A stretch of DNA of 64,000 nt from Asterella californica (lineage: Eukaryota > Streptophyta > Marchantiopsida > Marchantiales > Aytoniaceae): assembly GCA_036924285.1 (NCBI GenBank), contig JAYKYS010000017.1, positions 1,159,501 through 1,223,500 on the forward strand, in the 5' to 3' direction. The first letter of the stretch is position 1, and each line of letters opens with the position of its first letter. The notes under the pieces are model-generated. The model did not search any database. It was not told the DNA's origin and saw only the letters and a list, made by a program, of their open reading frames with translations. Below, in pieces: positions 20,625 to 42,787 of this stretch. The position numbers were made by a program, and so were the translations under genes.

Positions 20625-21163
20625 GTCACCAACACGTACGGACAAAGGCAAAGGTCTCATAAAATCCAAACTCCAACGATAATCTAACCTATAATCGATA
20701 AGGGGTGTAATTATGAAGTAGGAGCATTAAATGATGCTCATACTCGATCACAAACTACACATCATGCGACAAATTGCTACACATCGATGTGCATACCACG
20801 CCACCAATACTGTCTTTGGAGTAAGCTATGTGTATGCTTCTCCTCATGAGCATGTCGTACTAACTGTGCCCTCTGGGATGGATGTGACACTATCTGTACT
20901 CTCTCATTGTCTCACATTCTTAGTACATGTCGTCCTTCTCATCGAAATCTCTTCGCTCGTGGGAAGACACTATCTTGCTCCTTAGTACTTACTATGTCTA
21001 CCACCACGCCAGCACGTGTATACTCCATTTTTGTCACATCGTCATGGATATCTCGTTGATCTAGAACATCATCTCCACCCTCTGGTTCCGGGGACTCACA
21101 ATTTATTCTTTGACCTGAGAAAGATGCGACCTGACCTTCCATACTAGAGTTCATGACCAACAC
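20625..21163 (-). pseudogene. Family B integrase N-part, copy 1
   Basis: Minus-strand frames give WRGMH, CDRV-stop-ASFNAPT and LHPLSI, then PYVLVT at the junction with family A. This is the zinc-binding end of the integrase and the start of the core, the piece missing from 10429-11450. CGA-to-TGA and TGG-to-stop type changes break the frame. Confidence 0.65.
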
Positions 21164-21239
21164 ACAAAGAAAGACAGATGCGATGTCACCCTGTCACTAT
21201 CTCCTCATCAACCTCGTCATGTCGTCGAGCTCCATTCTG

Positions 21240-22600
21240 ATCTTATAGACTCGTGCATGAGTTGCGACTCAACCCATCGGCATCTAGGTTTGCAACTCTA
21301 GGTCTATGCACTATCTTGAAGTCATACTCTTGTAAGATCAGAGCTCATCATGCAAATTTTTTTATAAGCTTGTCAGACTCCATCAACCACTCGAGTGGCT
21401 GGTGATCAGTGATGAGAGTAAAGGGGTTCTCAAACAAATAACGTCAGAAGCGTGCCACAACCCACACTACTATCAAACACTCTCCATCATACGAACTATA
21501 TCTCGCCTCCATCGGATTGTTGGAACGACTGACACACGCCACCACAAACTCTTTTTTCTCATCATCATGCTGAGTCAGCACTGTTCCAAGTCTCGACATA
21601 CTCCAATCAATGTGCACTTGGAAGGGACGCCTCCTAACGAATCTCCTCAAGATGAGAGCAGATGTCAACTTATCCTTGAGCTCTACAAAGCTCACTCCTG
21701 CTCATCTCCCTACTGCCACTCCTGGTTCATCTTCATCAGCTTGGTCAATGGCTTCGCAATTGCAATAAACCCTTTCAAGTATCGACGATAGAAGTTCATC
21801 AAACCAACAAATGTCCAAATCCGACTCACATCTGTGGGACATGAGATACGTGCAATAACCTCAACCTTCATCTATTGAACACCCAACTCCTAGAAGAACT
21901 TACACTTCTCAAGGTGTAACTTCAACCCACGAGCTCTCAACCGCTCGAACACATCTTGTAAGTGTCTCTCGTGCTCCTCCACTATAGCACTATAGACTAA
22001 TATGTCGTCAATATAACATCGAACGAAATCTAGTCCTGCTAGGATCTTGTCCATCACCCTTTGGAACTCAGTAGGGGCGTTCTTCAACCCAAATGATAAG
22101 AACCGTCACTAATACAAACAATCTTTGCCGTGAGAGTCAATTCCCAAAAACGTTGTCTTGGACCTATCTCATTGACAACTGATGATACCCTGCTCGAAGG
22201 TCTAAAGTACTGATGACCTTCACATGTCTCACTGCATCAAATCTCTTCAGGTGTCAGAATGACATACTTATTGGACTTCATCTACCGATTGATAAGACGG
22301 TAGTCTCCACACATCCACCTATTCGTGTAGTTGTCATACATATCCTTCTTTGATGACATAACTGTGACAAATGCGTACTCTCCATGCGATATCTCCACCA
22401 CCCAACCTCCAACAAGTCTTGAGTCCTACTCTGGATCAAAGCTCTCTTCATGTCACTGTACATGTAAGGACGTCGGAAAATTGACGTGTCACTAGCCAAG
22501 TCGATCCGTATACCTGGTCTCTCCAAGATACCCAAATCCTTCATACTGAAGGAAAAATAATTCTTGTAACTCTTCAGGAATCTCTGAACTCTTCGTCTCT
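21240..22600 (-). pseudogene. Family B reverse transcriptase and RNase H, copy 1
   Basis: From 22600 down: LERPGIRIDLASDTSIFRRP and RTQDLLEVG (fingers), KNAPTEFQRVMDKILAGLDF then CYIDDILVYS with the catalytic YIDD near 22003-22014, EEHERHLQDVFERLRARGL and LHLEKCKFF (thumb), then RNase H reading PFQVHIDWSMSRLGTVLTQH, KKEFVVACVSRSNN and RYSSYDGECLIVVWVVA (catalytic Asp and Glu), and finally WLMESDKL near 21380. Standard Ty3/gypsy order and spacing. Frame changes and stops occur, for example at about 22100 and 22260. Confidence 0.85.
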
Positions 22601-22859
22601 CCTCTCCTATAAGCTTGGGTCCAATCTTTAGCTCTCAAGTATTCACTGTTACCATGCTAGAGAAAGAAGACGAAGTCGTTGACTGCTATCTTGCAACCTC
22701 TAGAATAGTTTCCTTCTGCTCACCACCAACAACCTCCACTGTGCATAAAACTCTTGTAGTCCTAGCTGCAAGCTCCGCACTCTCTCCTAATGCATCCCAT
22801 GATGTCCAAGTAACTTCAGTAACTAGCAGTAACACCCGTCGATCGTATTATCACTACTC

Positions 22860-23800
22860 AGCCAATCCAAAGCTAACAATCCACGTGAAGCATTCAAATC
22901 CATTGCTTGATCCAACACCTGATGACGTGAAGCCTCCGACATCGAAGCTAATGCCGTCGTATTCGTAGAGAAATCTGCTCGCTCTCTCTCATCGACATTG
23001 GGCTCCACCAACTGCTATAATTGAACATCCCATACAAGCCCATGTCTTCTATCTTCGTAAGCATGTGACGCTAGAAAGCTCACCAAAGTGAGTAATGCTG
23101 TCATGTGTCGTCTCACTAAGTTCACCACTACTATGGATGACCTATCAACGACTCTCATTACTTGAGATCGTAATCTTACATCCAAAATGTCATCAACCGT
23201 GAGGTGTGCTAGTCGTCTCACTCCATCATGTACGCGCTTAAGCACCTCTCTCGATAACAAGTTCGTCCACCACAACCGTGGATTATGTGCACGAGATCCA
23301 CTCTCGTTACATCTAACAGCACTGCCAGTCCAACCCAAGACAGCACTTGGTACACACTCGTCATCATCTGTGTATGAGCATCACCCAACAAAAGAACGTT
23401 CTCCAAGATGTACGTTGAAAAATCCACTTTGTGCATCTATAGATGCCATAAGATCCGTAACATGTCCCAAAATATACTAGATCTCGAGTCATGTTAACCC
23501 TAATTTCTTCCAGCACGCGTGTGATCATGACATGGTCACTCGGCTATCACCAAGTGAATGGTGCCCCCAGTAGTGAAATATCTGACGGTACAGCTTGTTG
23601 GTATCCTCTGATGGTTGATATAGACAACAACTCAAGATATCTCTGCACCAAGCGTGTCACATAATGCAATGAGATACGTCTCGCAATCTCATCTCTCTTC
23701 ACATACAAGTCTCTATATACTCGCATGCTTGTTTGCATTATCACATCCAAACTTGTGTTGATCTCTCCAAACAGCTCCAGCACACACACACCCTCCTTTG
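22860..23800 (-). pseudogene. Cytosine-C5 DNA methyltransferase carried by family B, copy 1
   Basis: Sits between protease and RT. Motifs in order on the minus strand: I, VLELFGEINTSL at about 23745-23783 (SAM-binding FxGxG type); YVKRDEIARRI (motif II/III area); IV, PCH at 23527-23535 preceded by a TGG-to-TGA stop (PCQ expected); VI, YILENV with ENV at 23395-23403; VIII, HNPRLWWTNL at about 23263-23295; IX, LTLVSFLASHAYED near 23050-23085; X, QVLDQAMDLN near 22885-22925. Such enzymes move a methyl group from SAM to carbon 5 of cytosine, the PCQ Cys being the nucleophile. This copy is broken by stops and frameshifts but keeps the ENV box. The target-recognition part lies between VIII and IX and is not interpretable. 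Confidence 0.85.
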
Positions 23801-24510
23801 GATACTGTCATACAATGAGAGTCGTATCCAACGGTGATAAGGTCACATGGTCAATAGCATGAACAACTTTATGTTCTTCTAGTAGCGATACAAAGGCTTC
23901 ACTCCAAGCCTGCTACACCAACCGATCAGCATACTGCTGCAATTCTCCACTCAAACTCCATAGTGGAACATCCAAGACAAATGGTACTACTTTAGTCATG
24001 CTAAGCATGTCTTCCACCTTCTCAAAGACCGAAGTATCCTCCGCATAGACATCATCCGATCAAGTGCTGACTGAATTGAACTCTACAACTGATGTCATCG
24101 TCCTTGATGTAAGCTCCGTTGTCCTCACTCTAACACTGAATCGCATTAGTAAGCGGCTCACTCGTCTCTCACCAGACTATCAACTTGATCTATAAGATGT
24201 TATCTCCGTCTAATAGTCGATCACAAATCCCATAAGGTATAACACAGCCTCTCCAACAAATACGTCATAAGACTCCAAGGTCGTAATGATGACCTTGACC
24301 TTCACCATAGAGCCATTTATGAGATGATCTGATCGAACTCTCATTGTCAACATCTCACATGTCACGTGTGTAGAGCTGTATCATTTGATCTCCTTATAGA
24401 TATCTGCAGCTGGAATGAACATCTCTCTACCTCGGACTTCCTTAGACCCAAACCAATGCACGCCGTCTTTCTTAACATCAACGACTGGGCTCTAACAAGA
24501 CTTTCTACGG
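23801..24510 (-). pseudogene. Family B protease and spacer before methyltransferase, copy 1
   Basis: Collinear with 38111-38800 in copy 2. The part at about 24180-24260 encodes VLYPMG-like protease C-terminal sequence; the catalytic area near 24480-24500 has lost about 5 bases, which removes the D-S-G/R box and shifts the frame. The spacer (23810-24180) is of unknown role and more decayed than in copy 2. Confidence 0.6.
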
Positions 24511-25205
24511 TCGATACACCTTCCCTGAAGGTGTCACCAAACAGAAGATACTACTTCTGTTGTCCAACAACACCACACCTGGTGCTAAACCAACATGGTC
24601 AATCGCCGGCCTAGCTGGTAAGTCATCTAACCTAGCAGTCGCTACTTGCCAAGTACCACTGATGGCCGTCTTGATCCTTGACTCCATGAACACATCTATC
24701 GTCTCTCGCTGAACCACCTCAGCTCTAGAGATGACTACATCCTCGTTCTCACTGAGCATGGCCGTCAACTAGAACACTAGAGCCAAACATCCTCCCAATG
24801 CCTTCATATCCATGGTTGAAAACAGTGGGGCTCGCAGAAGTACTGTAGCTATCCCCAACATCGAGTTTGACGTTGCATCCACAGACGTCGAGAGTTGACT
24901 CGCATCACCTTCATTCCTGGATGTCGATGTCTCCAACTCCACTACATCATCGTAAGAATCATAGACAAGACCTCTGATAGCGTGAATGACTGAAGAAGCA
25001 TGTACTATCTACCAGCCTCTCCATGTTGTGGATCCAACTCCACCGACGTACCTCATGACTCAAAGACATGTACTGCACCACGAGTCACTACCGTATATGT
25101 CTCAATCTGCACCACACCAATCATGAACTCGAAGTCAACTCCTTTCTCCTCCGTAAGATGTGGAAGCCTTTGTTCTTCAACCAGATCTCCGTTGAGCCAT
25201 AGTCA
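24511..25205 (-). pseudogene. Family B gag C-terminal / pre-protease region, copy 1b
   Basis: Collinear with 38800-39500. An open stretch at 24505-24768 contains VVQRETIDVFMESRIKTAIS and GTWQVATARLDDLPARPAID, which also occur at 26229-26426 and 38789-39283. The three copies show it is a conserved part of the family polyprotein upstream of the protease; its role is unknown. Confidence 0.6.
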
Positions 25206-25964
25206 TACTAGTGCTGACTCATCATCATGTTGAGTCAACACTGCTCCAAGTCTCAACATACTCCAATCAGTGTGCAATTAGAAAGGACGTCCCCTAACGG
25301 GTCTCCTCAAGTTGAGAACAAATGTCAACATATCCTTGAGCTCTATAAAAGCTCACTCTTGGTCCACCTTCATCAGGTTGGTCAATGACTCTGCAATTGC
25401 ACCAAACCTCTTCATATATCGATGATAGAAGTTTGCTAAACCAACAAATGCCTGAATTCGACTCACGTCTTTGAGACGTGATACGTGCAAAAGCCTCAAT
25501 CTTTGTCTGTTAAACACTCAACCCACCTGGATAGATGGTGTGACCCTTATACTCTACCAACTCTTGAAAGAACTTGCACTTCCCAAGGTGTAACTTCAAC
25601 CCATTAGCTCTCAACCGCTCGAACACATTCCGTAAGTGTCTCTCATGCTACTCCACTATAACACTATAGACTAAGATGTCATTAATATAACATCGAATAA
25701 AATTCAAGCTTGCTAGGATATTGTCCATCACTCTGTGAAACTCAGCAGGAACTTTCTTCAACCCAAATGGTAAGAACCGTCACTGATACAAACACTCCTT
25801 GCCATGAGAGTGAATTCTCAAGAATGCTTGGACTTATTTTCCTCTCTCACCGGCAATTGATGTTACCATGCTCGAAGGTCCAAAGTACTAAAGACCTTCA
25901 CATACCCCACTGCATCAAAGATCTCCCTCAAGTGTCAACATGGTATACTTATCGAACTTCAGGG
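25206..25964 (-). pseudogene. Displaced family B RT/RNase H block
   Basis: A second, partial RT plus RNase H start, collinear with 35820-36540 but placed between two gag/protease regions. The catalytic box reads YIND near 25676-25690 (YIDD expected). The left junction (about 25205-25232) switches from gag-type to RNase H-type sequence through the shared word TGACTCATCATCATG. The right junction (about 25958-25975) switches from RT to protease at AACTTCAGGGTATAACACAAC. Confidence 0.75.
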
Positions 25965-26300
25965 TATAACACAACATCTCCAACCAATACGTCATAAGAC
26001 TCTAGACCGTAATGATGACCTTGGTCCTCTCATAGAGCCATCTGTGAGATGATCTTATCAAAATCACATCGTCAGCATCTCGTGTGTCATATATAGAGTT
26101 GTATCCCTTGATCCATCTAGAGATGTATGCAGCTGGAATGGACATCTCTTTATCTCGCACTTCCTCAGACCAATGCATGCCGTCTTCTCCAACATTAAAG
26201 GTTAGGTTCCAAAGTCTAACAAGACTTTTTACGGTCGATACACCTTCCATGAAGGTGCCACCAAACAGAAGATATCACTTTTGTTGTTCGACAACATCAC
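25965..26300 (-). pseudogene. Family B protease, copy 1a
   Basis: Reads VLLDFGT at the catalytic site (DSGA expected; DSRA in copy 2), then PLMLEKTACIG-like and, toward 25970, EVVLYP. Only fragments of the usual ~100-residue domain are open. The C-terminal end is cut by the junction to the displaced RT block. Confidence 0.6.
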
Positions 26301-28463
26301 ACATGATGCCAAACCAGCACGGTCAATCGCCAGTCTAGTTGGTAACTCATCTAACCTGGTTGTCGTTGCTGACCAAGTACCATTGATAGTCGTCTTGATC
26401 CTCGACTCCATGGACACATCTATCATCTCTTGCTGAACACCTCAGCACGAGATAACTACATCATCGCATTGAGCATGGCCATCAACTAGAACACTGGAGC
26501 CAAGCTTATTCTCAATGTCTTCATATCTGTGGCTGAAAATAGTGAGACTCGCAGAACTGTTGTAACCGCCCTCAACATCAAGTTTGACGTCGCATCCATG
26601 AACGTCGAGGGTTTGACGTCCTAGATATCGATGCATCCAACTCCACTATATCATCGGTAGACTATTTAGGAACCATAGACGCGGTTCTCAACGCCTTCGA
26701 TAACATGAATGACTAAAGAAGCCTAGCTTGCCTACCAGCCTCTCCGTGTTATGGATCCAACTCCACCGATGCACCTCGTGGTTCAAAGACATGTACTGCA
26801 CCTCGAGTCACTATCATAGATGTCTCAATCGGCACCAAACCAGCCATGAAGTCAAAGTCAACTCCTTTTCCTTCATAAGACATGGAAGTCTTTGTTCCCA
26901 AACCGGATCTCCACTGAGTCATAACCATACTAGTTATCTTATGCTCCAACTGCTCAATCCGAGTAGCCATACCCGCATTTGACGTCGTAGCGGACGGTGG
27001 ACCGACTAGTCTTCTCTCGAGCGTTAGACCTCTATCTCCAACTCGACCACCATGGTCTTCATGAGCTCCTCCGTCTCGTTCACGATCAGCCTTCTCTTGT
27101 CATAGCTCGAGGTGGAGATCAAAACAATGGTCACTACTGTGACATAGTCACTCGCAATGCTCACACTACCTAGGCATCACATGAGACATCTCATAAGTCT
27201 CATAACCACCTCTCTTTTGTGTGCATTCCTTGTGATTATGAAGAACATCACACATCCAACAAGGACCCACTTGCTGCAAGCTAGAGAAGGACAACATGAG
27301 CTTCTACCCACTAGGTCCTCCAACACATGCATAAGATCGTGACTATTCAACACGATCTCTACCACCTTGATGTGTAGTCTGTGGTCTCCGAATAGAGGTG
27401 GTCATCCCATGTGACACCTTCCTACTCACCCAGCAGTCACCATCCTCTCCTCCACCATGTTGAGCTCAATCCGCTCAGTCAAACTAAAGACAATCGTCAA
27501 CTTCGGAGCGGTGTCTCTAAAATGAGTCGTATCTCTAACTCTCTTACATAGCTCTCGGTCTAGTATCTCATATCAGAATTGCTTGTGCCTCCGTCATCTA
27601 TTGAGTACCACGGATCAACCGCCTCATGCGAGTATACGTCTCGTGTAGGCTCTCTCCAGTCTTCCATTAGAACTCATGCAGACTCCTCAACTTATCGATC
27701 CGCACATTTTGACAGTTCTTCCTCAAACACTAGAAGAACTGAACCAAAGGGTTAAACCCTAGTGGTATCTCGCTCATACTACCCCTGCTCCACTATTAGT
27801 GGATGCACCGCTGGTAGATATTCTGTCACTCGTGGATGTACCACTGCTATTGGCATCCGAACTCGCATGTGTTATACCTCCCAAAACTGCACAAGTAGTG
27901 ACAGAAACATAGTTGGAAGATCAATGTTATCTCCACAACTCAATCTCCATGCTGTAGTCCCGTCTGAACTTATGATAATCATCCATAGGTGGCCCGTCTG
28001 TCATAAAGGATGTGAACAGCTGTGGGTTCCGCATTTGCTGCAGATAATACCAATTGTCAAACTCTTGGATGAAGTCATCTAGCTCAATGATATCCAGCGT
28101 ATCCGAGTATCGTCGAGGATCCTTCGTGACCTCATAGATCTCGTCCATGTCTCACAACAATGGTGTGACAACGCTGTGTGTACTTCCAACCACATCTTCG
28201 TCCGAATGGATATTCTCTGTCGATGAGACCGTTGCTACTGATTGGTACCTCACACCACTCTGTGTGAACCTACTGCTTATTACAACTGAATCTCCGTCGG
28301 AACCTCTGTAGACCTCCGTGATGACAACCCTCGTCTCAATCGTGAACACTAAGCTCTAACTAGAGCGTCAAAAACTCATCACCACACGTGACGCCAACCT
28401 GCCTAACCCCGCTCCTACAAAGCTCACATAACCTCTACTAGGACGGTCAAGGTAAGGACAACC
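26301..28463 (-). pseudogene. Family B gag and leader, copy 1a
   Basis: From 28463 down: a short leader (ACTAGGACGGTCAAGGTAAG, shared with 41045-41064), the N-part MDEIYEVTKDPRRYSDTLDI and EFDNWYYLQQMRNPQLFTSF (27927-28148), a gag core around 27500-27900, a knuckle-like region near 27200-27350 and the Ser/Thr-rich C-part near 26700-26970. It matches copy 2 gag throughout. Numerous frame breaks. Confidence 0.6.
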
Positions 28464-30790: not shown

Positions 30791-31074
30791 ATTGACTTCA
30801 AAAATTTCAAAAGTTCGTACATCTTGTAAATTATGGGCACCACAACTCCACCTCTCAATGTTGTTCTTACTAGACGGTGGGTTTGTCCTCGATGTATATA
30901 GTAGAGATAGTCGATTAGATCTTTACGTGGTATGGATTGCAGACAGGCGACTAACGAGGGGACGATGTAGCACCCGACCTCATGATCCTTGTACCCATGA
31001 AGGTGTATATCTCGTAGATGGAATATGGAGCTATCTGGAATTAGAGGGACCTAACCGTCAGTTAGGGGGACGAT
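30791..31074 (+). pseudogene. Family B pol 3' end with PHD remnant and 3' UTR
   Basis: Plus-oriented counterpart of 10253-10450. Near 30876-30899 it encodes RRWVCPRCI followed by a stop: the last Trp and the final C-x2-C pair of the PHD finger. This confirms that family B pol terminates one residue after the finger. The 3' UTR and polypurine-like GTCAGTTAGGGGG follow, up to TGTGATACA at 31075. Confidence 0.75.
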
Positions 31075-31577
31075 GTGATACATTTGTGTATGTGTATGAG
31101 ATCTTCCATGTGTTATGTATATGTGTGGTGTACCTCTGACCTCGATGTATGTGTGTAGTGATGTGTATGTGCACAACAGCTGTCACGTCAGTTAGACACC
31201 TTGGCTAGGTTGACCGAGTGCGGAGTGACGAATCCCGGTAGGGCCGTTAATGCCGTTAGTTCTTGGGATGGCCCACTAGGGATATACTTCGCAGGTAGGG
31301 CTTGGAGATCTTAGTTCTTCAAGTTGAGCCTTCAAGCTCCTAGCTATGGTGGATAGTCTTTGTGAGTGCAATCTAGAGTCACTACGAGCACAGAATGGAT
31401 TTGGCTGGACTTTAGTGATTGTTTAGTGCCAGCTGGCATGGTGGAGTGAGTACATACCGTTTAACATTGTGGTACACGTGTGTATGTGTATGAGATCGTC
31501 CATGTGTTATGTGTATGTGGGATGTATCTCTGACAGCGATGTATGTTGTGTAGCGATGTGTATGCGCACGACACCTT
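31075..31577 (+). repeat. Family B terminal module S-X-S
   Basis: S at 31075-31178 (TGTGATACA...GCACAACA) and again at 31469-31577 (TGTGGTACA...GCACGACA) flanks X at 31181-31466. X is the reverse complement of 42497-42787 and of the pieces around solo LTR F, where S is absent. The same X-S junction occurs near 10020, so S-X-S existed before these copies were made. It may be the true 3' LTR, a tandem of partial LTRs, or an LTR carrying a duplicated end. Confidence 0.6.
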
Positions 31578-32292
31578 GAGAACCACAAAGAAGACTCCGA
31601 GACTGATGTTTCTACAAGCCAAAGTTGCTAACCGTGATGTTACTTTCCTTGTGGACACAGGAGCGACCCACTCCTTCATAAGTCCGAAGTTGGTGAAGAA
31701 GTTAGGCATGTCTAACTCCAAGACATACAAGCTTATTCAGGTGCGCTTTGCCAAGGGCAAGACGTATCAAACTTCTGAAGTGGTATTTGACGTATGACTT
31801 GCGTGTGGGAAGTTGGAGTTCACATAGAACTTGACGGTGTACAAGATAGATGATATCCATACGTCTTGGGAAACAATTTCTTGGATAGGTTTGAAGAGAA
31901 ACTTAGGCAAAAAGTTTGCGGGACCTTTGGTCATTGTCAAGAATCCACACGAAGATGTCTATATGTTAGATCTTCCTCTCGAGTGGTAGTTGCATCTTAC
32001 CTTCAATGTTTCTTTGTTAAAGAAGTACTTCAAGGATGATTTGCGTCCGAAGCATAAACAAGTTTTCAGGTCTCAATCTGATGTTGTGCAAGACGAAGCA
32101 GAAAACGAGATGGAGACTATTTAGCGATCACGATATAAATCTAACCGAACGGAGTACTTGGTCAAATGACATGGATACCATTTGAACGAAGCAACTTGGG
32201 TACTAGAGGAAGAATCTGGAACATGCAAACAAATTACTGGATCTCTTCAAACGGCGACAATGACAACAAGGAAGTTAGCAAGATGAGGACAT
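31578..32292 (+). pseudogene. Family C protease fused to integrase tail and chromodomain
   Basis: Plus-oriented, internally deleted C fragment. The protease part reads FLQAKVANRDVTFLVDTGAT (catalytic DTGA at 31654-31665), SFISPKLVKKLGM and VRFAKGKTYQTSEV. After LDRFE near 31890 it jumps to the integrase C-terminus (FAGPLVIVKNPHEDVYMLDL) and the chromodomain at about 32107-32218 (TEYLVK, stop TGA at 32167-32169 where Trp is expected, HGYHLNEATWVLEEES). All of RT, RNase H and the integrase core are missing. The same domains are more complete in C1. Confidence 0.8.
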
Positions 32293-33774
32293 CTCCTCCA
32301 TAGTTATTCAACTTTCTAGAGTCAGAGCAGAGGACAACAAGAGACGAAGATGTCCCAGTGTCTGATGAGGCTGAGGCGGAGGAGAGCGATGACGATGAAG
32401 ATCAAAGAGAAGATTGAGGAGATTGCCACATACCGGAGGATGTGCAGGTTTGGAAGGGGTGGATGTCGTGATGTGAATCATTTCACATAGTAAATGATTC
32501 ACTTCTCTGTCAGGCGTTAGTCTCTCTGAGTGAAGTTAAGACCTCAAAGAAGTCCATTTTTGGAAAATGTTATATATTTTGAGTCTTAGTAGGTTGATTA
32601 CCATGTTGATAGGGTTTACGCTCATGGGTTGTATTTGCGTGTCGTCCATGCACGCTTTCTAGCTGATTTAAGTTATTTTTCGGGGCTACGTGTCATTTTA
32701 GGTAGTTTAAGTTTTACGCTGGCACTCTAGGGGGCTTGACGTGGTAGCCTATGAGTGTAGATAAGTTACTAGGTAGTTTAAGGCACAAAAGGACAGTCAA
32801 GTGGAGCTATGAACTCCCATTGGTCCATTTTTGTCTTTTGTAAAACTCTAAGTTTAGAAACAGAGCTCTAGAGTGGATTTCGAGCAATTGGTAAGGGCAC
32901 TGCGAAATCTGAGAGCACAGGGAGATAGAGCTCGTCGAGCTAAGCACTGTCAGTGAAATTCTTGATCGATTTGGATCAATAAACAAGGAGTTATGTCCAA
33001 TTGAAGTTCGGATTGTGCCAAAACTACATCACTTTTGTTGGATTTGGGATTTTGAGTGTCAATTGCAGCAGAATTGAGGAAATCGCTTCAAACCTTCATG
33101 GTTGCGTTCACTGTCATCAGGGCTATGACTGTCCAAAAACTTTCAAGTGATTGGAGTGACTGAGTAATTCAGGGCGGCCGCTGAAGCTGAGGGGGCCTGA
33201 AAAGCTCTCAATCTAGAGCAGCAACTTCAGAGAACGAGATCTGGAGTTCTGTGTACAATCAGGAGGTCCAACTTCACACGGGTGTTCAGCAAGCTGTGAA
33301 CTCAAAATCCTGTAAGAATCTTCGAAAGTGATCGAGCCAATTTCCTGTTATTGGTCTAAGTAGCTATTTGGGTACCAGAAATTGCCATAATTTTTCTGTT
33401 CAGAAAGTTTCTAACCATATCTCGGTGCTCTGAATTGATCTCAAGCTGAAACTTCGTATGTGTATCCAGTAGGACCTCATTTACATGTAGGAGAAGTTCT
33501 GAAGCCTAAACCATCTTAGTTTCTGATTCTTGACTGTTAAAGTTCGCTGGTGAACCTTATTACTGTTAGTCTGATCTGATTTTCACTTCCTGAACATACT
33601 AGAGGATCCATTCGACCTGTGTGAAGGTTTATAGTGCCCCTTATGACCTGAAGCCTACCTCTGGATAGTAAACAACAAGAGCCTGAAGCCCAGCACTTTC
33701 CTAAGTAGTCTTCCCACAACCTTCACGATCATATCACAGCCAGAAAGTTCCGCCCTTCCCGAGGAAAACTCTCA
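32293..33774 (+). mobile_element. Family A 3' end and LTR, plus orientation
   Basis: 32293-32463 is the family A pol end (acidic tail) and polypurine tract; 32464-33774 is an LTR starting TGTCGTGATGTGAATCA and ending ACTCTCA. At about 1311 bp it is shorter than the LTRs of the nested A element, mostly through a deletion near 32540-32600. It lacks both foldbacks of the 11451-12965 LTR and so gives the ancestral sequence for them. Confidence 0.8.
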
Positions 33775-33780
33775 ACTCTA

Positions 33781-34130
33781 CAACGGACATCATAGACGGT
33801 TGGACCGCTAGGTGTGCTGGAGGAACCGTTTAGAACCTTGGACTTTATGGGAAGTCCGTCCCAAGTCATCTTGTGACTTGCTCATGTTTTGAGACCGACC
33901 TAGACGGGTCTAGCTCGGGACTTAGGATTGTTGAGCTTGATGATTAGGGAGACGGTCTGGTTCCGGTCCGGATCAAACTGAGATAAGGTAAGTGGTGCAT
34001 GGACGCTAACTTGTGATTGTGTTTGCAGGTTAGCGGTGTAAATTTCGTGATCTACTGAGCAAGAGCTTCCGCTGGCGCAACAAGACGGTAGGTGCGCGAA
34101 ATGCAGGAAGACCGTTTCCGTAGACAGAAG
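33781..34130 (+). repeat. Family C LTR, 3' portion, plus orientation
   Basis: Reverse complement of the outer 350 bp of the other C LTRs: GGTTGGACCGCTAGGTGTGC, CATCTTGTGACTTGCTCATG, GTGGTGCATGGACGCTAACT, ending GGTAGGTGCGCGAAA. No TGGTATCAGAGC primer site follows, so it is a truncated LTR, not the start of an element. Confidence 0.75.
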
Positions 34131-34590
34131 CCTGGGAAGGCTACATGGGGCATACACCTTGTGATTAATCTAACCCGTTGAGACTTGGAAGAACAATGTG
34201 CGGCAGACGTTGCTAGTTCGACTTCTACGAAGCAGGAGCAGTCTTCTGGAGGTGTGAGAAGTCGAGTTGAACCCCCGTAAGCCGAAGATTGCTTCGGGAA
34301 GACTGTGTTGAGAAGACTAGAAGAAGTGATCTGGAAGCAAGACACGTCTTCCCGAGCTTCCCTGTAGATAAGTGTGTGATATTTTAGGTGGTAGTTGTTT
34401 GTTTAGGTCCAGAGCACCTTCTGAAGGGTCTAGAAGTCGTGTGGTTTTGTGAGAAGACGGGATTTCTAGACAAAACCCATGTGTTTGTGTGTTTGAACAG
34501 ATCTTAGAACTTAGAGCAACGATACTTGTGCAAATCCTCTGTGGGAACAATATCTTGTATACTAAATGGGCAAAAGGAGAAATCACGCGT
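34131..34590. other. Spacer rich in AGAAG/GAAGAC, no gene seen
   Basis: Between a C LTR end and truncated family B copy 2. GAAGAC or its complement recurs (for example near 34211, 34280, 34297 and 34346). Composition resembles 30311-30790. Open frames have no motif. Confidence 0.45.
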
Positions 34591-35560
34591 CACTATAGGA
34601 GTCAAACATGACATGTGTCAACCTCTAGAACAACCATCACACACCAACATACGGGCTGCTCCACCAACAGACCCACATAACATACACCTCAAGCCTGCTA
34701 AGCTTGGGTCAACGATACCATCGATGTTGGAAAAATGACATGGCGCGCAATTACGCACATGGTCCTTCCAAACAACACCATCACGGCACTCTAACATGAG
34801 TACTCCAGAAGATAACATCTCACGCACTCGTAAAATAGTACGCTTTGCGGTCACGTCCGCAGTATGCTGTAGATAGATATATCTACAGCAGACTGCATTA
34901 TATGTATATACGCAGTCTGCTGTAGATAGATATAATCGTCAGGATGAAACTTGCGAATCGATCGCTGATAACCTCCTCCTTGAATAGTCGCATATCGCAA
35001 CGTGTCTCTATGCTGAACAATCGTTAGATTCTCAAAAGCCATAGACATAACTCTCCGAAATGTCTCTGCTCGTTGAGAACATGCGTTCACTCACATATTC
35101 GAGTCATATGCGATCTGAGAACGCATACGTCGTTCCTTCACTCGTCTTGTCCGATAATGTGACCAACTCAATCCACTTGGAGAAGTGTTCCACCATCACC
35201 AACACATACCGGTGGTGACTTGCGCTCAATAATAAGGATCTCACAAAATCCAAACTGGGTAACCCAACCTCATAATCGGTAAAGGGTGTAACTGTGGAGT
35301 AGGAGCATTAAACGATACTCATACTCGATCAAAAATCACACATCATGCGACAAACTGCTGCACATTAACGTGCATACCACGCCACCAATACTGTGTTTGG
35401 AGTAAGCTATTCGTACGCTTCACTCCAAAATGTCCCAACTCCTCATGGGCATGTCGTACTAATTGTGCCCTATGAGATAGATGTGGCACTATCTGTACTC
35501 TCTCATCATCTCACGCTCGAAGTACATGTTGTCTTTCCGATACTCCAACATGTACCCTAA
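34591..35560 (-). pseudogene. Family B integrase and PHD finger, copy 2
   Basis: From 35560 down: zinc-binding region, then VEHFSKWIEL near 35160-35190. The core is cut short: near 35095-35130 the sequence jumps to the segment ACSQRAETFRRVMSMAFENL, losing the second Asp and the Glu of the DDE triad. FHPDDYIYLQQT, then VLMLECRDGVVWKDHVRNC and PCHFSNIDG lead to the finger: CMLC at 34675-34686, CDGC at 34630-34641, a TGG-to-TGA stop at 34618-34620, HMSC at 34606-34617. The final C-x2-C pair is lost at the truncation. With copy 1 and 30876-30899 all eight zinc ligands of a C4HC3 PHD finger are represented. Confidence 0.8.
34865..34928. repeat. Triple alternating inverted repeat inside family B integrase
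   Basis: TGCTGTAGATA (34865-34875), its reverse complement (34880-34890) and the forward sequence again (34918-34928) alternate. The middle and last form a 17-bp perfect hairpin (34880-34896 with 34912-34928). Copy 1 has only the single ancestral sequence (TGTTGTAGATAG near 10808), so this is a local inverted duplication that also broke the reading frame. Confidence 0.75.
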
Positions 35561-35579
35561 TGCAACTCCAAGTTTATGT

Positions 35580-36800
35580 ACTACCTGGAAGTCATACTCA
35601 TGTAAGATAAGAGCCCATCGTGCAAGCTTCCATGTAAGCTTGTCGGACTCCATCAACCACTTGAGCGGCTGATGATCAGTGATGAGAGTAAAGAGGTTCC
35701 CAAACAGATAACGTCGGAAGTGTGCAACAGCTCACACTCTCCTCGTACGAACTGTACCTCACCTCCGCTGAATTGTTGAAGCGACTGACATACGCCACCA
35801 CAAACTCTTTTTTCTCATCATCATGTTGAGTCAGCACTGCTCCAAGTCTCAACATACTCCAATCAGTGTGCAATTAGAAAGGATGCTCCTAACGGATCTC
35901 CTCAAGATGGGAGCACATGTCAACGTATCCTTGAGCTCTACAAAAGCTCTCCTACTCATCTCTCCACTGCCACTCCTGGTCCACCTTCATCAGCTTGGTC
36001 AATGGCTTTGCAATTGCATTAAACTCTTTCACGTATCGACGATAGAAGTTTGTCAAATCAATAAATGTCCCAACTCGACTCACATCTATGAGACGTGAGA
36101 TACGTGCAATAGTCTGAACCTTTGTCTGTTGGACACCCAACCCACCTGGGTAGATGGTGTGGCCCATATACTCTACCAACTCCTGGAAGAACTTACACTT
36201 CTCATGGTGTAACTTCAACCCATGAGCTCTCAATCGCTCGTACATATCTCGTAAGTGTCTCTCGTGCTCCTCCACAGTAGCACTATAGACTAAGATGTCG
36301 TCAATATAACGTCTGACAAAATCCAATCATGCTAGGATCTTGTCCATCACCCTCTGGAACTCAGCAGGGGCGTTCTTCAAACCCAGATGGTAAGAACCTC
36401 CACTGATACAAACAATCCTTGCCGTGAGAGTCAATTCTCCACAATGCTGCCTTGGACTTGATGTCCTGCTCGAAGATCCAAAGTACTGAAGATCTTCACA
36501 TGCCCCACTTCATCAAAGATCTCCTCAGGTGTCGGCATGACATACTTATCGGACTTCGTCTGTCGATTGATAAGACGATAGTCTTCACACATCCGTCTAT
36601 CCGTGTAGTTGTCATACATATCATTCTTTGTTAGCATAACTGTGGCAGATGCATACTCTCCATGCGACATGTCCACTAATCCAGCTTTCAACAAGTCTTG
36701 AGTCCTACTCTAGATCAAGGCTCTCTCCATGTCATTGTATCTATAAGGACTTTGAAAGATTGACGTGTCATTAGTCAAGTCGATTCGTATACCTGGTCCC
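35580..36800 (-). pseudogene. Family B reverse transcriptase and RNase H, copy 2
   Basis: From 36800: GPGIRIDLTNDTSIFQSPYR, KAGLVDMSHGEYASATVMLT, MCEDYRLINRQTKSDKYVMP and FSTLDLRAGH (fingers and palm, first catalytic Asp), DFVRRYIDDILVYSATVEEH with YIDD at 36298-36309, LHHEKCKFFQELVEYMGHTI, then FIDLTNFYRRYVKEFNAIAK and KLMKVDQEWQWRDE (connection), then RNase H HTDWSMLRLGAVLTQHDDEK and KEFVVAYVSRFNN. Typical Ty3/gypsy polymerase; 35952-36326 is the longest open part. Stops and frame changes lie at about 35880, 36330 and 36430. Confidence 0.9.
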
Positions 36801-37229
36801 TTCAAGGTACCCAAATCCTTCATACTAAAGGTAAAACAATTCCGTATCTCTTCAAGAATCTCTGAACTCTTCGTCTCTCCTCTCTTATAAGCTTGGGTCC
36901 AATCTCTGACTCCCAAGTATCCTCTGTCATCATGCTAGAGATAGAAGACGAAGTCATTAACTGCTATCTTGCAGTCTCTGGAGCAGTTTTCTTCTGCTCA
37001 CCATCAACAACCTCCACCGCCACTATGCGAAAAACTCCTACAGTCCTAGCTGCACGCTCCACACTTTCTCCTATGACATCCCATGATGTCCAAGGATGAC
37101 GAACTTCACACGCCTCACCCCTTGTCTTTGCCTCCACCGACTCGATAAGCAAAGAGCTCGGAAGTGTCCGAGCAATAACATCTGTCGATCGCATTCGACG
37201 CTGCTCAGCCAATCCAAGGTTAACAATCC
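36801..37229 (-). pseudogene. Family B linker between methyltransferase and RT
   Basis: An open stretch (36964-37293) reads RSTDVIARTLPSSLLIESVE and then VRHPWTSWDVIGESVERAAR, GVFRIVAVEVVDGEQKKTAP. Its start overlaps the end of the methyltransferase. It is present in copy 1 at about 22560-22860. No domain is recognised; it probably tethers the methyltransferase to the polymerase before protease cleavage. Confidence 0.5.
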
Positions 37230-38110
37230 ATGTTAAGCAATTCAAGTCCATTGCTTGATCCAATACTTGAGGACGTGAAGCCTCCAACACCAAAAGTTAC
37301 TGTCGTCGTATCCATAGCGAAACCCATCGCTCGCTCTCTCTCATCGGCATTGAGTTCCACCAACTACCGTAACTAAGCATCCCATACAAACCCAGGTCCT
37401 CCATCTCTGTAAGCATGTGACCCTGGAAAGCTCACCAAAGTGGGTAACGCTATCATGGGCCGTCTCACTAGATTCACCACTGCCATGGGTGACCTGTCGA
37501 CGACTCTCACTACTTGAGCACCTCTCTCGGTAACAAGTTCGTCCACCACAACCGTGGACGATGTGCACGAGATCCCACTCTCGCTGCATCTAACAACACT
37601 GCCGATCTGATCCAGGATCGCACTTGGTGCACACTCGTCATTATTTGTGTACGAGCATCACCCAACAAAGGAATGTTCTCCAAGATGTATGCTGGAGAAT
37701 CCATCTGATGCATCTGAACATTTTCTAGAACATCCTAGATCGCTGGTCATGTAAACCCTGACCTCTCCCAACACGTGTGTGACCTTGACATGACCACCCG
37801 GCTATCACCAAGTGAATGGTGCCAACAAACGTGAGATCATGCGCCTCTAGCAACGAAATATCCGACGGTAATGCTTGTTGGTATCCTCTAATGGTTGATA
37901 TGGGCAACAACTCAAGATATCTCTGCATCAAATGTACCACATGACGCAATCATATGCGTCTTGTAACCTCATCTCTCTTCACATACAAGTATCGTTGTAC
38001 TTGTATGTCTACCTGCAATACCCCAGCCAAACCTGTGCTGATCTCTCCAAACGACTCCACAACACATATACTCTCCTCTGGATACTGTCTCCTATGGAGT
38101 CGTATCCAAC
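37230..38110 (-). pseudogene. Cytosine-C5 DNA methyltransferase carried by family B, copy 2
   Basis: About 290 codons, a short C5-methyltransferase core. Minus-strand motifs in order: I, VESFGEISTGL at 38022-38060; YLYVKRDEVTRRI (motif II/III); YLELLPISTIRGYQQALPSD; IV, LVIAGWSCQGHTRVGRGQG with SCQ at 37786-37794 (PCQ expected; the Cys nucleophile is kept); a TGG-to-TAG stop at 37725-37727; VI, PAYILENIPLLGD with ENI at 37672-37680; VLLDAARVGSRAHRPRLWWT, motif VIII, at 37543-37590; IX, LPTLVSFPGSHAYRDGGPGF at 37393-37450; ADERERAMGF near 37325-37350; X, QVLDQAMDLNCL at 37231-37262. Order and spacing match the family. Frameshifts and stops make it inactive here. Being in the same place in two copies, between protease and RT, it belongs to the element and is not a captured host exon. 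Confidence 0.87.
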
Positions 38111-38460
38111 GGTGGTAAGATCACAATGTCAGTAGCAGGAACATCCTTTGATTCCTGTACTGGTGGTACAAAGGCTTCACTCCAAGCCTGCTGCACCAAC
38201 CGATCAGCATACTGCTGTAACTCTCCACTCGAACTCCAGAGTGGAACATCCAAGGCAGATGGTATTACCATAGTCATTCTATGCATGTCTTCCATCTCTT
38301 CAAAGACCGGAGTATCCTCCGCATGAGCATTGTCTTCTAACAACTCGTCCGGCCAAGTGATGACCGAACTGAACCCTGCAATGAATGTCATCGTCCTTGG
38401 TGTAGGCTCCGTTGTCCCAACTCTAGCACTGAATCGCACTGGTAAGCGACTCACTCGGTC
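38111..38460 (-). pseudogene. Family B spacer before methyltransferase, copy 2
   Basis: A 121-codon open stretch (38092-38454) from SRLPVRFSARVGTTEPTPRT to VPATDIVILPPLDTTP. It contains SSSGELQQYADRLVQQAWSE, a likely amphipathic helix. It links the protease end to methyltransferase motif I and exists, more decayed, in copy 1 (about 23810-24180). It could be an N-terminal arm of the methyltransferase; no known domain fits. Confidence 0.5.
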
Positions 38461-38890
38461 CTCATAGGACTACCAACCTGGTCTATAAGATGCTATCTTT
38501 GCTCAATATTCGATCACGAACCCCATAGGATATAACACAACACCTCCAACCAATACATCATAAGACTCTGCGGTCGTAATGATGGCCTTGATTCTCACCA
38601 TGGAGCCATCCGTGAGATGATCTCGTCAAACTCTCATCGTCAGCATCTCTCCTGTCATGTGTAGAGATGTACCTCCTGATTCCTTAGAGATGTCTATAGT
38701 TGGAATGGACATCTCTCCACCTCGGACTTCCTCGGACCCAATCCAATACACGCCGTCTTTCTCAACATCAACGGTTGGGCTCTAGAGTCTAACAAGACTT
38801 TCTGCGGTCGATACACCTTCTCTGAAGGTGCCACCAAACAGAAGATACCACTTCTGTTGTCCAACAACACCACACTTGGTACCAAACTTG
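38461..38890 (-). pseudogene. Family B aspartic protease, copy 2
   Basis: Reads CLVAPSEKVYRPQKVLLDSR then AQPLMLRKTACIGLGPRKSE near 38700-38830; the catalytic D-S-G-A box appears as D-S-R-A, so Gly is replaced by Arg. Further on, SYDVLVGG and VVLYPMGFVIEYWA (38520-38580) give the domain's C-terminal part. A retroviral-type protease cuts the gag-pol polyprotein; its position directly before the methyltransferase suggests that the latter is released from, or kept within, pol by this enzyme. Confidence 0.7.
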
Positions 38891-40965
38891 CACGGTCAAT
38901 CGTGGTCTAGCTGGTAACTCATCTAACCTGGCAATCGCCGCTTGCCAAGTACCACTGATAGCTGTCTTGATCCTCGACTCCATGGACACATCTACCGTCT
39001 CTCGCTGAACCACCTCAGCACTGGAGGTAACAACATCCTCGCTCTCACTGAGCGTGGCCGCCAGCTGGAACACTAGAGCCAAGTTGACTCCCAATGTCAT
39101 CATATCTGTGGTTGAAAATAGTGAGGCTCGCAAAAATATTGTAGCCGCCTCCAACATCGGATTCGACATCGCATCCACAAACGTCGAGGGTTGACTTGCA
39201 TCACCCCCACTCCTGGATGTCGATGCCTCCAATTCCACTACACCATCGGTAGGTCGTTTAGGAACCATAGACGTGGTCCTCAACGTCTCCGATAATGTGA
39301 AGGATTGAGGAAGCTTGGCTTATCTACCAACCTCCCCGCGTTGTGGATCCAACTCCACCGACCGCACTTCGTGACTCAGAGGCACTTACTGCACTTCGAG
39401 TCACCGCCGTAGATGCTTCAATCTGCACCACACCAGCCATGAAGTCGAAGTCACCTCCTTCTTCTCCATAAGACGTGGAAGCCTCTGTTCCATCAGATCT
39501 CTGCTGAGTCATAGTCATACCTGCTTCTGACGTCATAGCCATACCTGCTTCTGACGTCATAGCAAGCGGTGGACCGACTGATCCTCTCCTAGGTGCTGGA
39601 CCTCTACCTCTAGCTCGACACCACGATCTCTCTGAGCTCCTCCGCCTCGTCCACGATCAACCTTCCCTTGCCGTAGCTGGGGATGAAGATCAAAACAATA
39701 GTCACTACTGTGACCAGGTCATCCGCAATGCTCAAATTGCCTAGGTACCGCTTGAGACGTCGTTGACGTCTCATAACCATCTCTCCTCTGTGGACAATCC
39801 TTCTGCTGATGAGCACCATCACACATCCAGCAAGGATCCACTTGCTGCTGACTAGAGAAGGACGGCATGGACTTCTACCCACCAGATCTTCCAACACCAC
39901 CTTGACATGGTGACTGCTCCGCATGATCTTTATCACCACCACCACCACGCTATTGCGAGCTTGTGATCCTCGAGAAGAGCTGGTTGTCTCATGTGGTGTC
40001 TCTTTGCTGAACCTAGCAACCACCACCCTCTCCTCCACAATGTTGAGCTCAATCCGCTCAGCCAAATCAAAGACAAACGCTAACGTCGGAGCGGTGTCTC
40101 TAAGGAAAGTGGTATCTCTGACTCACCTACGCTGCTCCCGATCTAGTATCTCATATCAGAACTGGACTGCCTATGCTTCCGTCACCCCTTAGATAACGCT
40201 GATGAACCGCCTCATGCGAGTAAACGTCTCGCTTAGACTCTCTCTAGTCTTTCGCTGGAACTCCTGCAGACTCCTCAACTTGTCGGTCCGCACACCTTGA
40301 TAGTTCTTCCTCAAACACTGGAAGGACTGAACCACAGGATTAAACCCTGGTGGTATCCCGCTCACACTACCACCTGCTCCACTACTAGTGGACGCACCGT
40401 CGGTAGTAGGTACTCCACCACATGTGGATGTACCACTGCTACTGGCACCTGAACTCGTAGGTGCTACGCCTCCTGAAACTACACCAATAGTGATCGAAAT
40501 GTAGTTGGGAGACCAATGTTGTCGTCACAACTCAATATCCACACTGTAGTCTCATCGGAACTCATGGTAATCGTCCATCGGCGGTCCCTCCAAGTGTTGG
40601 AACAAACTCTTTCATGTCATGAAGGGTGTAAACAGCTATGGGTTCCGCATTTGCTACAGATTGCACCAACTGTCGAACTCCTAGATGAAGTCATCCAGCT
40701 CGATGATACCCATTTTACTTGAGTAACGTCGAGGTCCTTCGTGGCCCCATAGATCTTGTCCATGTCCTACAAGAACGGTGTGGTGACACTCAACTCACCA
40801 TCAGAAAACGCGCTATCTACGTATGACTCGTCTTCTGGAACAACCGACGGCAATGGTGTAGGTAGTCGGTACCTCACCCCACTCCGTGTATATCCACTGT
40901 CCGAGAAAACCTCACCAGAACCTCCCGAGAACTCCGTGATGATAGAATCTCGATAACACACTCTC
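38891..40965 (-). pseudogene. Family B gag, copy 2
   Basis: N-part at 40767-40961 (Ser/Gly-rich, GSGEVFSDSGYTRSGVRYRL), followed by a diverged gag core around 40100-40700. Two zinc knuckles lie at 39698-39832: CWMCDGAHQQKDC (CWMC codons 39821-39832) and EHC-G-x-PGHSSDYC. A basic RG-rich stretch (RGRGGAQRDRGVELEVEVQH) and a Ser/Thr-rich stretch (39324-39560) follow, then MVPKRPTDGVVELEASTSRS onward to the protease. Knuckles bind genomic RNA in such capsid proteins. Frame changes are frequent. Confidence 0.65.
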
Positions 40966-42496
40966 CAACCAAAATGTCAAAATCTCCGTCAATCGTAACC
41001 ACCACTTGCCTAACCCCGCTCCTACTAAGCTCACCTATCCCTTACTAGGACGGTCAAGGTAAAGACAACATGTATCTGTCATCATCATAGACAGCCTCTC
41101 ACGGTCTGTTGGTCGTCACTCCAACCGCACTGTGAGAGAAACAAAGATACTCTAACTGATCCGCAACTCCAGCCTCACTATCGACAGCACACTGGAGTGA
41201 ACTCACTCTAGAAATCAAGCGCCAACACAAGCAAACGTGACGCACAAACAGGAAGTAGAATATGGAGGGGTTCCAACCACAAGAAGTCCATACGATAACC
41301 TTTCACACTCAAACATTCACATAAAGAGAAACCCAGTCCCATCCGGACAGACGTCTCTCCTTCGGTGACCACATGCACAATATATGGTCACCAATCGTCA
41401 TAACTGATACTTAAGGTCATTAACTAGATGTCCACACCTCTAGTAACTCCAAAAATATCTACGTGGTAGCTCTACTAGCTCACCCAAGACAACTACCACC
41501 AACTGTCTTCATATGCGTCTCTACGGTATAGGCAAACACTACCACAACTATAGCTTCCCCCTAATACTGTGGGGTTGTCCTACCACCCATCTAGGAACGT
41601 GTGAGAAGGTCTCTTACTACCTTAAACAAGTCGATAAGTACTTGTACGCATTCTAGAAGACACCAAGTGCTATTGGTCTAATGATAAAGCCAAAGCTAAG
41701 ATTGCAGAGTTAAGGGACAAGTTCATGATTAGTGTTGGGATGGATGACCTACTAGTTTTACACTTCTCACACAACTGAAACTTGTATACCTCTCTCACGC
41801 ACGCCTGCAAGCTGGCTTGCGGCGGGCTCAGGCTTGAGCTCCGCTCCGCCTCCGCACTCTCGCACTCCACTCTCACGCCTCTGCACCTTTGCTCCTCAAA
41901 GCCTCGAAGCCTCTAAACGCCTCCTAACACGCACTCCCGCTCACTCTCCGCTTGGATAGGAGAAGAAACTCGAGCCAAACACCACAAGAAGGATGCGTAC
42001 GAAGAGCACACACCCCAAAACAGCAACTTAGAGATCAAAATCTGCCAAATTGGCACTCGCAGGCGAGTTTAGATCATCTACGACCTTCTTTGACTTGTAA
42101 CTTCTTTTATCTTTCACCAAATTGAACGATTTTTGATACGTTGGAATCGTCTTCTCAGCCCGCACCTACTGCACTCTTCAGCACCACAAATTGTCGACTC
42201 ATGCCAATCCGACATCCACCGATGCACTTCTGCCGATCTCAAATTGATCACAAAAATCGGTCACAAGAAATTCCAGCAGCGCTTCCGCACTATCTCACCA
42301 TCAAATCGACCAAGAACAGGTTCAAATGACAGTAATCCATACTGTGATCGATCACCCAACCAAAAAGAACCACTCCGCGTACGCACACATCCGCAAATCA
42401 AAGATATCAACGATCTGTCCACTCCGGAGATACCACTGGCTGAAATCTGCGACCTGAAACCTCTCAATCAGACCTCACAATCTGAGTTCTTCAAGT
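40966..42496 (-). mobile_element. Family B long 5' leader, copy 2
   Basis: About 1.5 kb between the partial 5' LTR and gag, collinear with 53812-55110. It includes ATGGAGGGGTTCCAACCACA (41270), a CT/CG-rich stretch at 41800-41950 and CTCAATCAGACCTC near 42462. I see no coding conservation between the copies. No TGG-type tRNA primer site was recognised at its start. Confidence 0.6.
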
Positions 42497-42787
42497 GATA
42501 AACGGTATGTACTCAATCCACCATGCCAACGAGCACTAAACGATCACTAAAGTCGAGCCAAATCTACTATGTGCTCGTAGAGACTCCAGATTGTACTCAC
42601 AAAGACTATCCACCATAGCTAGGAGCTTGAAGGCTCAACTTGAAGAACTAAGGCCTCCAAGCCCAACCTGTGAAGTATACCCCTAGTGGATCATCCCAAG
42701 AACTCGCCCTAACGGCACTAACGGCCCTACCGAGATTCGTCACTCCGCACTCGGCCAACCTAGCCGAGGTGCCAAACTGACGTGACA
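42497..42787 (-). repeat. Family B 5' LTR part (module X), copy 2
   Basis: Minus strand starts TGTCACGTCAGTTTGGCACC at 42787 and ends ...TACCGTTTATCA near 42497. It matches X at 31181-31466. Module S, which precedes X at 31075 and 10252, is absent here and also at 56514, so at least two copies end at the same base. Confidence 0.65.

What the first reader, a model, noticed from the sequence alone, without database searches (positions are those of the whole stretch)
37230..38110. LTR retrotransposon encoding a cytosine-C5 DNA methyltransferase
In family B copy 2, between protease and RT on the minus strand, six C5-methyltransferase motifs stand in canonical order: VESFGEISTGL (I), SCQ with Cys kept (IV), LENIPLLGD (VI), DAARVGSRAHRPRLWW (VIII), LPTLVSFPGSHAYRDGG (IX), QVLDQAMDLN (X). 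Seen directly: motifs, order, spacing and position inside pol. Known: this is the C5-MTase fold signature. Inferred: an active progenitor could methylate its own or neighbouring DNA.
Basis: partly seen in the sequence, partly recalled or inferred. Interest (0 to 1): 0.95.

Follow-up and report, generated by a model that had tools for sequence, protein, structure and literature searches.

The report
Plant jumping gene with DNA methyltransferase
The stretch is a decayed copy of a plant jumping gene (retrotransposon) that carries its own DNA-methylating enzyme; the same genome holds closely similar copies with unbroken reading frames, and relatives occur in mosses and liverworts, so a land plant appears to host a recently moving element that may write the very mark plants use to silence such elements.

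Summary
Window 37198-38087 (-) is a broken cytosine-C5 methyltransferase (DNMT3 class) between protease and RT in a Gypsy-type retroelement; a second broken copy lies at 22853-23807 (-). The window's own genome (517 Mb) has 1,338 matches to the element's ORF1/ORF2 junction and copies with unbroken frames. These show what the window only hints at: ORF1 = gag-protease-DNMT3 (about 1370 aa), then UAG-CAG-UCA (the CAR-YYA readthrough context), then in the same frame ORF2 = RT-RNase H-integrase-PHD finger (1041 aa). The ends are not LTRs but split direct repeats A-coding-B-A-B, with TG...CA termini and 4-bp target duplications. The DNMT3 domain keeps its catalytic residues in 16 of 16 copies examined and is under purifying selection (pN/pS 0.19). 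Relatives are in Sphagnum, Marchantia, Riccia and Calypogeia. Closest published: KnitGypsy-Dnmt3 of the alga Klebsormidium (2018), also with DIRS-like repeats. New here, as far as the searches show: land-plant hosts (one paper says such elements are absent there), signs of recent activity, DNMT3 on the gag side of a likely readthrough stop, and a PHD-tailed integrase. That the enzyme methylates the element's cDNA is inference.

The parts
42552..42787 (-). copy 2: 5' repeat A1 (recognisable part), begins TGTCACGTCA
   Evidence: blastn with repeat A of natural copy L018, 84%; preceded by CCTT
40954..41937 (-). copy 2: leader between A1 and ORF1
   Evidence: blastn with L018 piece, 86% over most of it
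36967..40949 (-). copy 2: decayed ORF1 (gag-protease-MTase)
   Evidence: 88-89% identical to L018 ORF1
38685..38900 (-). copy 2: protease remnant
   Evidence: tblastn of Sphagnum protein P0108, 67% over 72 aa
37198..38087 (-). copy 2: DNMT3-class methyltransferase remnant (the finding)
   Evidence: tblastn P0001 E 2.9e-51; DNMT3A best in PDB with joined pieces, E 0.01
36958..36966 (-). copy 2: TAG CAG TTA, ORF1 stop in CAR-YYA readthrough context
   Evidence: context
34598..36963 (-). copy 2: decayed ORF2 (RT, RNase H, integrase, start of PHD)
   Evidence: 89-92% to L018 ORF2; RVT_1, RT_RNaseH, Integrase_H2C2 over cut-off, rve below it; PHD piece
30845..31069 (+). copy 2: last part of ORF2 and 3' leader, turned round by an inversion
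   Evidence: ORF2 positions 3070-3123 here, up to 3074 at 34598
31074..31178 (+). copy 2: repeat B1
   Evidence: blastn, 89%
31181..31359 (+). copy 2: repeat A2 (recognisable part)
   Evidence: blastn, 85%
31466..31573 (+). copy 2: repeat B2, ends GACA, followed by CCTT
   Evidence: blastn, 94%; target duplication CCTT
22689..28167 (-). copy 1: decayed ORF1, partly duplicated and interrupted
   Evidence: 80-84% to L018
22853..23807 (-). copy 1: methyltransferase remnant, keeps the PC of motif IV and the region between VIII and IX
   Evidence: tblastn P0001, P0006
22680..22688 (-). copy 1: TAG CAG TCA
20634..22685 (-). copy 1: ORF2, first part
   Evidence: 86-88% to L018
10426..11445 (-). ORF2 end (integrase C-terminal part) of copy 1 or of a further fragment
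   Evidence: 86-89% to L018

Best explanation
Shown: two decayed copies of a Gypsy-type retroelement with split direct repeats that encodes gag-protease-DNMT3 in ORF1 and, behind an in-frame UAG-CAG-UYA, RT-RNase H-integrase-PHD in ORF2. The family is abundant in the same genome, some copies have identical end repeats (recent insertion), and the DNMT3 domain is conserved. Inferred: most ribosomes stop at the UAG and make Gag-protease-DNMT3; a minority read through and make the full polyprotein. The DNMT3 is thus made at the level of Gag, enters the particle in which reverse transcription takes place, and methylates the new cDNA (probably at CG, as published for SymbioDIRS DNMT3s), so that it looks like host DNA and is spared by nucleases or DNA sensors. 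The B1-A2 junction serves as template for completing the ends; the integrase, perhaps guided by its PHD finger, inserts TG...CA ends with 4-bp duplications. I put the readthrough step at about 0.75 and cDNA methylation as the main role at about 0.4.
Against: No activity was tested. The published KnitGypsy DNMT3 gave no methylation in yeast (called inconclusive there). Decay of the window copies is C-to-T in all contexts, strongest at CHG, so it does not point to a CG-specific enzyme. RNA folding after the stop is only weakly better than shuffles (z -1.3 to -1.85). In the Riccia and Marchantia proteins P0066 and P0117 the annotated protein runs from MTase into the RT start without a stop, perhaps by predicted introns. 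No primer binding site was recognised (by eye). The last 78 codons of ORF1 show no protein-level constraint (pN/pS 1.47).
Confidence: 0.8

Rival explanations
1. The methyltransferase acts on chromosomal copies rather than on cDNA: it silences its own or competing copies after insertion and limits damage to the host (self-limiting element).
For: Window copies decay by C-to-T in all contexts, as methylated DNA does; 1,338 junction matches exist.
Against: Decay is strongest at CHG, as expected from host pathways (recalled); selection within a mobile element for self-silencing is hard to sustain, yet the domain is constrained.
Confidence: 0.2
2. The domain is kept as an RNA methyltransferase or as a nucleic-acid-binding part of Gag, not as a DNA methyltransferase.
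For: Its position in the Gag ORF; weak similarity to DNMT2 (E 4e-4).
Against: DNMT3 is the best profile and structure match and the catalytic motifs are conserved.
Confidence: 0.2
3. The UAG is a plain terminator; ORF2 is expressed by reinitiation or from a spliced or separate RNA.
For: Readthrough was not measured; gene models P0066 and P0117 join MTase and RT start without a stop, which splicing could explain.
Against: Same frame in the 11 copies with a long ORF2, CAR-YYA context, 96 of 100 listed junctions still TAG, same ORF1 end in Sphagnum and Calypogeia proteins.
Confidence: 0.2
4. Chance resemblance, or a host gene that happened to land in one dead copy.
For: Pieces alone miss PF00145.
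Against: Two window copies, many same-genome copies and four named bryophyte genera have it, with protease before or RT behind it where the protein reaches that far.
Confidence: 0.01

Closest known systems
KnitGypsy-Dnmt3 of Klebsormidium nitens (PMC5890265; abstract and passages seen)
   Same: Dnmt3-class domain inside the polyprotein of a Gypsy-type element; repeats arranged as in DIRS; [quoted passage not shown]
   Different: Charophyte alga, with fewer copies than Symbiodinium has. The main text does not hold the words PHD or readthrough and calls the ORF Pol. Sequence kinship could not be tested: no protein named Klebsormidium was listed.
SymbioDIRS-Dnmt3 of Symbiodinium (PMC5890265)
   Same: Dnmt3 domain and split direct repeats; de novo CG methylation shown in yeast by the authors.
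   Different: Tyrosine recombinase instead of rve integrase; dinoflagellate host.
DIRS/PAT-type retroelements (features recalled, and from PMC5890265)
   Same: Split direct repeats A-coding-B-A-B.
   Different: This element has an rve integrase, TG...CA ends and 4-bp target duplications.
Gypsy elements with candidate gag-pol readthrough, e.g. RIRE2 of rice (cited in PMC2754532, passage)
   Same: In-frame stop as proposed gag-pol switch.
   Different: Here the stop separates gag-protease-DNMT3 from RT-integrase.
Orchid Ty3/Gypsy elements with an m6A demethylase domain (PMC9289625; listing and passages)
   Same: Land-plant Gypsy element that captured a nucleic-acid-modifying enzyme.
   Different: RNA demethylase, not DNA methyltransferase.

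Membership tests
DNMT3-class C5 methyltransferase | Motifs I, IV (PC), VI (ENV), VIII (RxR), X in this order | tested here: met
   16 of 16 same-genome ORF1 copies; the window copy has SCQ and ENI
DNMT3-class C5 methyltransferase | PF00145 over the curated cut-off | tested here: met
   L018 35.4, L024 34.6 bits against 22; the window copy itself 13.1, not over
DNMT3-class C5 methyltransferase | Closer to DNMT3 than to DRM, DNMT2 or bacterial enzymes | tested here: met
   Profiles against PDB (no DNMT1 at E <= 0.001); structure ranking
DNMT3-class C5 methyltransferase | De novo DNA methylation | not testable with these tools
   No assay
Gypsy-type retroelement | gag, aspartic protease, RT, RNase H, rve integrase in this order | tested here: met
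   RVT_1, RT_RNaseH, Integrase_H2C2, rve over cut-off; a CCHC start at 409 and DSG at 731 of ORF1 in 16 of 16, though Pfam names no gag or protease in the two ORF1 copies scanned
LTR retrotransposon | Long terminal repeats at both ends | tested here: not met
   A1-coding-B1-A2-B2 in 9 of 10 copies with 5' flank; no pair seen in L017
DIRS / tyrosine recombinase retroelement | Tyrosine recombinase, no target duplication | tested here: not met
   rve integrase; exact 4-bp duplications in 7 of 9 copies, 3 of 4 bases in the other two
KnitGypsy-Dnmt3 type | Dnmt3 domain + Gypsy domains + DIRS-like repeats | tested here: met
   definition
KnitGypsy-Dnmt3 type | Common descent with the Klebsormidium element | not tested
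   No Klebsormidium sequence came up by name or 36
UAG-CAR-YYA stop codon readthrough | UAG followed by CAR YYA with an open frame behind it | tested here: met
UAG-CAR-YYA stop codon readthrough | Readthrough product | not testable with these tools
   No translation data

The most novel reading that the evidence does not exclude
A land-plant retroelement makes a DNMT3 at Gag level, by placing it upstream of a readthrough stop, so that every particle carries a DNA methyltransferase that pre-methylates the cDNA before a PHD-guided integrase inserts it. The mark of silencing becomes a passport. The same architecture, with DIRS-like repeats, has persisted from charophyte algae to mosses and liverworts as one lineage.
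Probability: 0.3. Interest if true: 0.88.

Novelty: new variant of a known kind. Interest (0 to 1): 0.72.

Why it matters
DNA methylation is how plants silence transposons; an abundant, apparently recently mobile transposon that carries its own DNMT3 turns that on its head. [quoted passage not shown] the bryophyte proteins argue otherwise. Marchantia, which carries relatives, is a tractable laboratory plant (recalled), so the open question of why retroelements keep methyltransferases becomes testable. The combination of rve integrase and split direct repeats is also a puzzle for models of reverse transcription.

Tried and rejected
Rejected: chance, single host gene insertion, recent capture from the host's DNMT3-like gene (36% over 61 aa), a near bacterial or phage relative (the one viral-contig scan gave one locus, a phage-type Dcm by eye, 34%; bacterial-type enzymes P0131-P0133 at E about 1e-6).

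Led nowhere: codon-position bias between the two window copies (MTase 0.183 at positions 1+2, 0.161 at position 3, P 0.44; RT P 0.41; protease P 0.54), as expected of decay after insertion. LTR search. CpG observed/expected: 0.72-0.73 in five young copies, 0.70-0.76 in the window copies, 0.65-0.72 in the flanks, 0.92 in family A; not interpretable. First structure job poor (pLDDT 54.1), made with 20 sequences; the second, with 84, is the one used. Host identification with the family A RT failed: the three top-scoring rows are angiosperm proteins at 54-58% identity and the rows that cover it best (61-64%) are unnamed. RT kinship of the MTase elements: the sample was drawn by similarity to family A, so biased; one of three RT pieces matched other Gypsy proteins better than P0129.

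Full report
Observation. Minus-strand translation of 36800-38500 shows the quoted motifs in three frames. Separate pieces give no PF00145 match (0 of 8); the MTase pieces joined with X give PF00145 as the only family, at 13.1 bits, below the cut-off of 22. In the PDB the joined pieces find DNMT3A first (E 0.01). The protein search settles it: 141 proteins at E <= 0.01 among 3207 candidates, 120 listed, best 63% identity over the whole query at E 5e-123, many with PF00145. Every source name among the 120 that gives an organism is a bryophyte: Calypogeia fissa, Sphagnum troendelagicum, S. tenellum and S. jensenii, Marchantia polymorpha and M. paleacea, Riccia sorocarpa; most rows are unnamed.

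Place in the element. Copy 1 and copy 2 both read protease, linker, MTase, linker, RT on the minus strand. Proteins from elsewhere show the same neighbours: protease with MTase in P0122 (both over the Pfam cut-offs) and, by alignment only, in P0108 (Sphagnum); MTase with RT in P0129 (RVT_1 over the cut-off; MTase end by alignment), and MTase with the start of the RT ORF in P0066 (Riccia) and P0117 (Marchantia) by alignment only.

Same-genome copies. The window is part of a 516.7 Mb assembly in 773 contigs. PF00145 gave 123 scored matches of 1250 candidates (a lower bound; at least two are host genes). I fetched 20 stretches chosen for long open frames, so the fractions below are not genome-wide rates. 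ORF1 has 1367-1381 aa in 16 of 20, with 92-100% pairwise identity, median 98%. Seventeen of 20 end in TAG CAG TCA; the other three are shorter (1243-1281 aa) and end at another stop. ORF2 follows directly behind the stop in the same frame and has at least 1030 aa in 11 of the 17 copies checked. In the two copies scanned, Pfam names DNA_methylase in ORF1, and RVT_1, RT_RNaseH, Integrase_H2C2, rve and a C-terminal PHD finger (42.5 bits) in ORF2. Window copy 2 is 88-92% identical to copy L018 and copy 1 80-88%.

Readthrough context. The six bases CAR YYA behind UAG are described as essential for TMV readthrough in PMC2754532 (passage). Genome-wide the junction pattern occurs 1,338 times with up to one mismatch, against 0 for the pattern read backwards; of the first 100 places, all that are listed, 96 have TAG, 3 TAA and 1 AAG. 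Related proteins end at the same place: 100 residues from motif X to the end in P0003, P0022, P0052 (Calypogeia), P0060, P0062 and P0108 (Sphagnum), 97 in P0008 and 99 in L018; 149 in four proteins of another group (P0033, P0059, P0077, P0084). P0128 and P0129 of a distant clade run on into RT, and so do the gene models P0066 and P0117. Some ends may be contig or gene-model ends. The final window of ORF1 has the lowest synonymous diversity of 32 windows (0.0165; next 0.0302), which would fit an RNA signal; the first windows of ORF2 do not show this. A stem beginning about 10 nt behind the UAG is predicted in both window copies and in L018 and L024, but the folding energies are not decisive (z -1.3 to -1.85).

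Ends. Ten copies were extended at the 5' side by 1 kb. Nine show A1 (about 294 nt) at the 5' end, and B1 (about 108 nt), A2, B2 at the 3' end; L017 showed no pair. Termini are TGTC...GACA; the 4-bp flanks are identical in 7 of 9 copies and share 3 of 4 bases in L013 and L024. A1 and A2 are identical in L018, L020, L021 and L023 and differ by 1-4 bases in the other five, with one gap in L024. Window copy 2 fits: CCTT precedes A1 at 42787 (-) and follows B2 at 31573 (+), so the 3' part was inverted after insertion. DIRS-like repeats with Gypsy domains are what the legend of Fig. 4c in PMC5890265 says of KnitGypsy-Dnmt3.

Selection. Pairwise over 16 copies, pN/pS is 0.19 (95% 0.13-0.27) for the MTase, 0.24 (0.19-0.30) for gag, 0.40 (0.27-0.61) for protease and linker and 1.47 (0.71-4.48) for the tail behind the MTase; over 11 copies it is 0.06 for RT and 0.10 for integrase. 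Choosing copies by open frame removes nonsense changes but not missense ones. PCQ, ENV and the two arginines of motif VIII are intact in 16 of 16. In the wider protein set the motif IV Cys is kept in 59 of 61, the VI Glu in 66 of 78 and the first VIII Arg in 61 of 82; the commonest losses (E to K, R to H or C) look like cytosine deamination (by eye). Of 12 proteins there that span motifs I to X, 8 keep Cys, Glu and both Arg.

Host. The genome also holds a DNMT3-like exon (L002) and a DRM-like gene with rearranged motifs (L003) (class by eye). The element's domain is 36% identical to L002 over 61 residues.

Literature. PMC5890265 (abstract and passages) reports DNMTs in retrotransposons of dinoflagellates and a charophyte. 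[quoted passage not shown] its supplements were not read. PMC7264820, on additional ORFs in plant LTR elements, does not hold 'methyltransferase' or 'methylase'; passages of PMC6453930 and PMC10952607 do not mention such elements. Ten searches listed no title or abstract start that describes such an element in bryophytes, one with a readthrough stop behind a DNMT, or a plant Gypsy integrase with a PHD finger; only open-licence papers are held and most were not opened.

Judgement. What the thing is rests on tool results. How it works beyond anatomy is inference: readthrough is likely, cDNA methylation is the best of several uses, and none was tested.

Noticed in passing
window 30845-34597: Segment inverted after insertion of copy 2: element position 3070/3074 lies at both breakpoints, and the target duplication CCTT is found only if the inversion is assumed.
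   Followed up: yes
window 34621-34938 (-); L018 ORF2 996-1040: PHD finger at the extreme C-terminus of the integrase ORF, PF00628 42.5 bits in two natural copies; pN/pS 0.09 (0.00-0.25).
   Followed up: partly
window 46900-51830 (-): A different Gypsy family (family A) with long open stretches (290 aa with RT, 242 aa gag-like by eye) and no methyltransferase seen.
   Followed up: no
window 44000-46600, 51900-56400, 28464-29440: A further repeat family in several tandem or nested copies, with 13-bp tandem repeats inside.
   Followed up: no
window copies 2 and 1 against L018: C-to-T decay is highest at CHG (0.19 and 0.27), then CG (0.12 and 0.21), CHH (0.10 and 0.15), against 0.04-0.05 for A/T transitions; in the reverse direction C-to-T is 0.03-0.06 (reverse done for copy 2 only).
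   Followed up: partly
window 25218-26354 (-): A further partial stretch of the element (RT and protease parts side by side) inside copy 1.
   Followed up: no
P0130, P0125: Very divergent protease-MTase (P0130; protease below the Pfam cut-off) and MTase (P0125) proteins from unnamed sources, 28-30% identical to P0071, hinting that the element type is wider than the plants named here.
   Followed up: no
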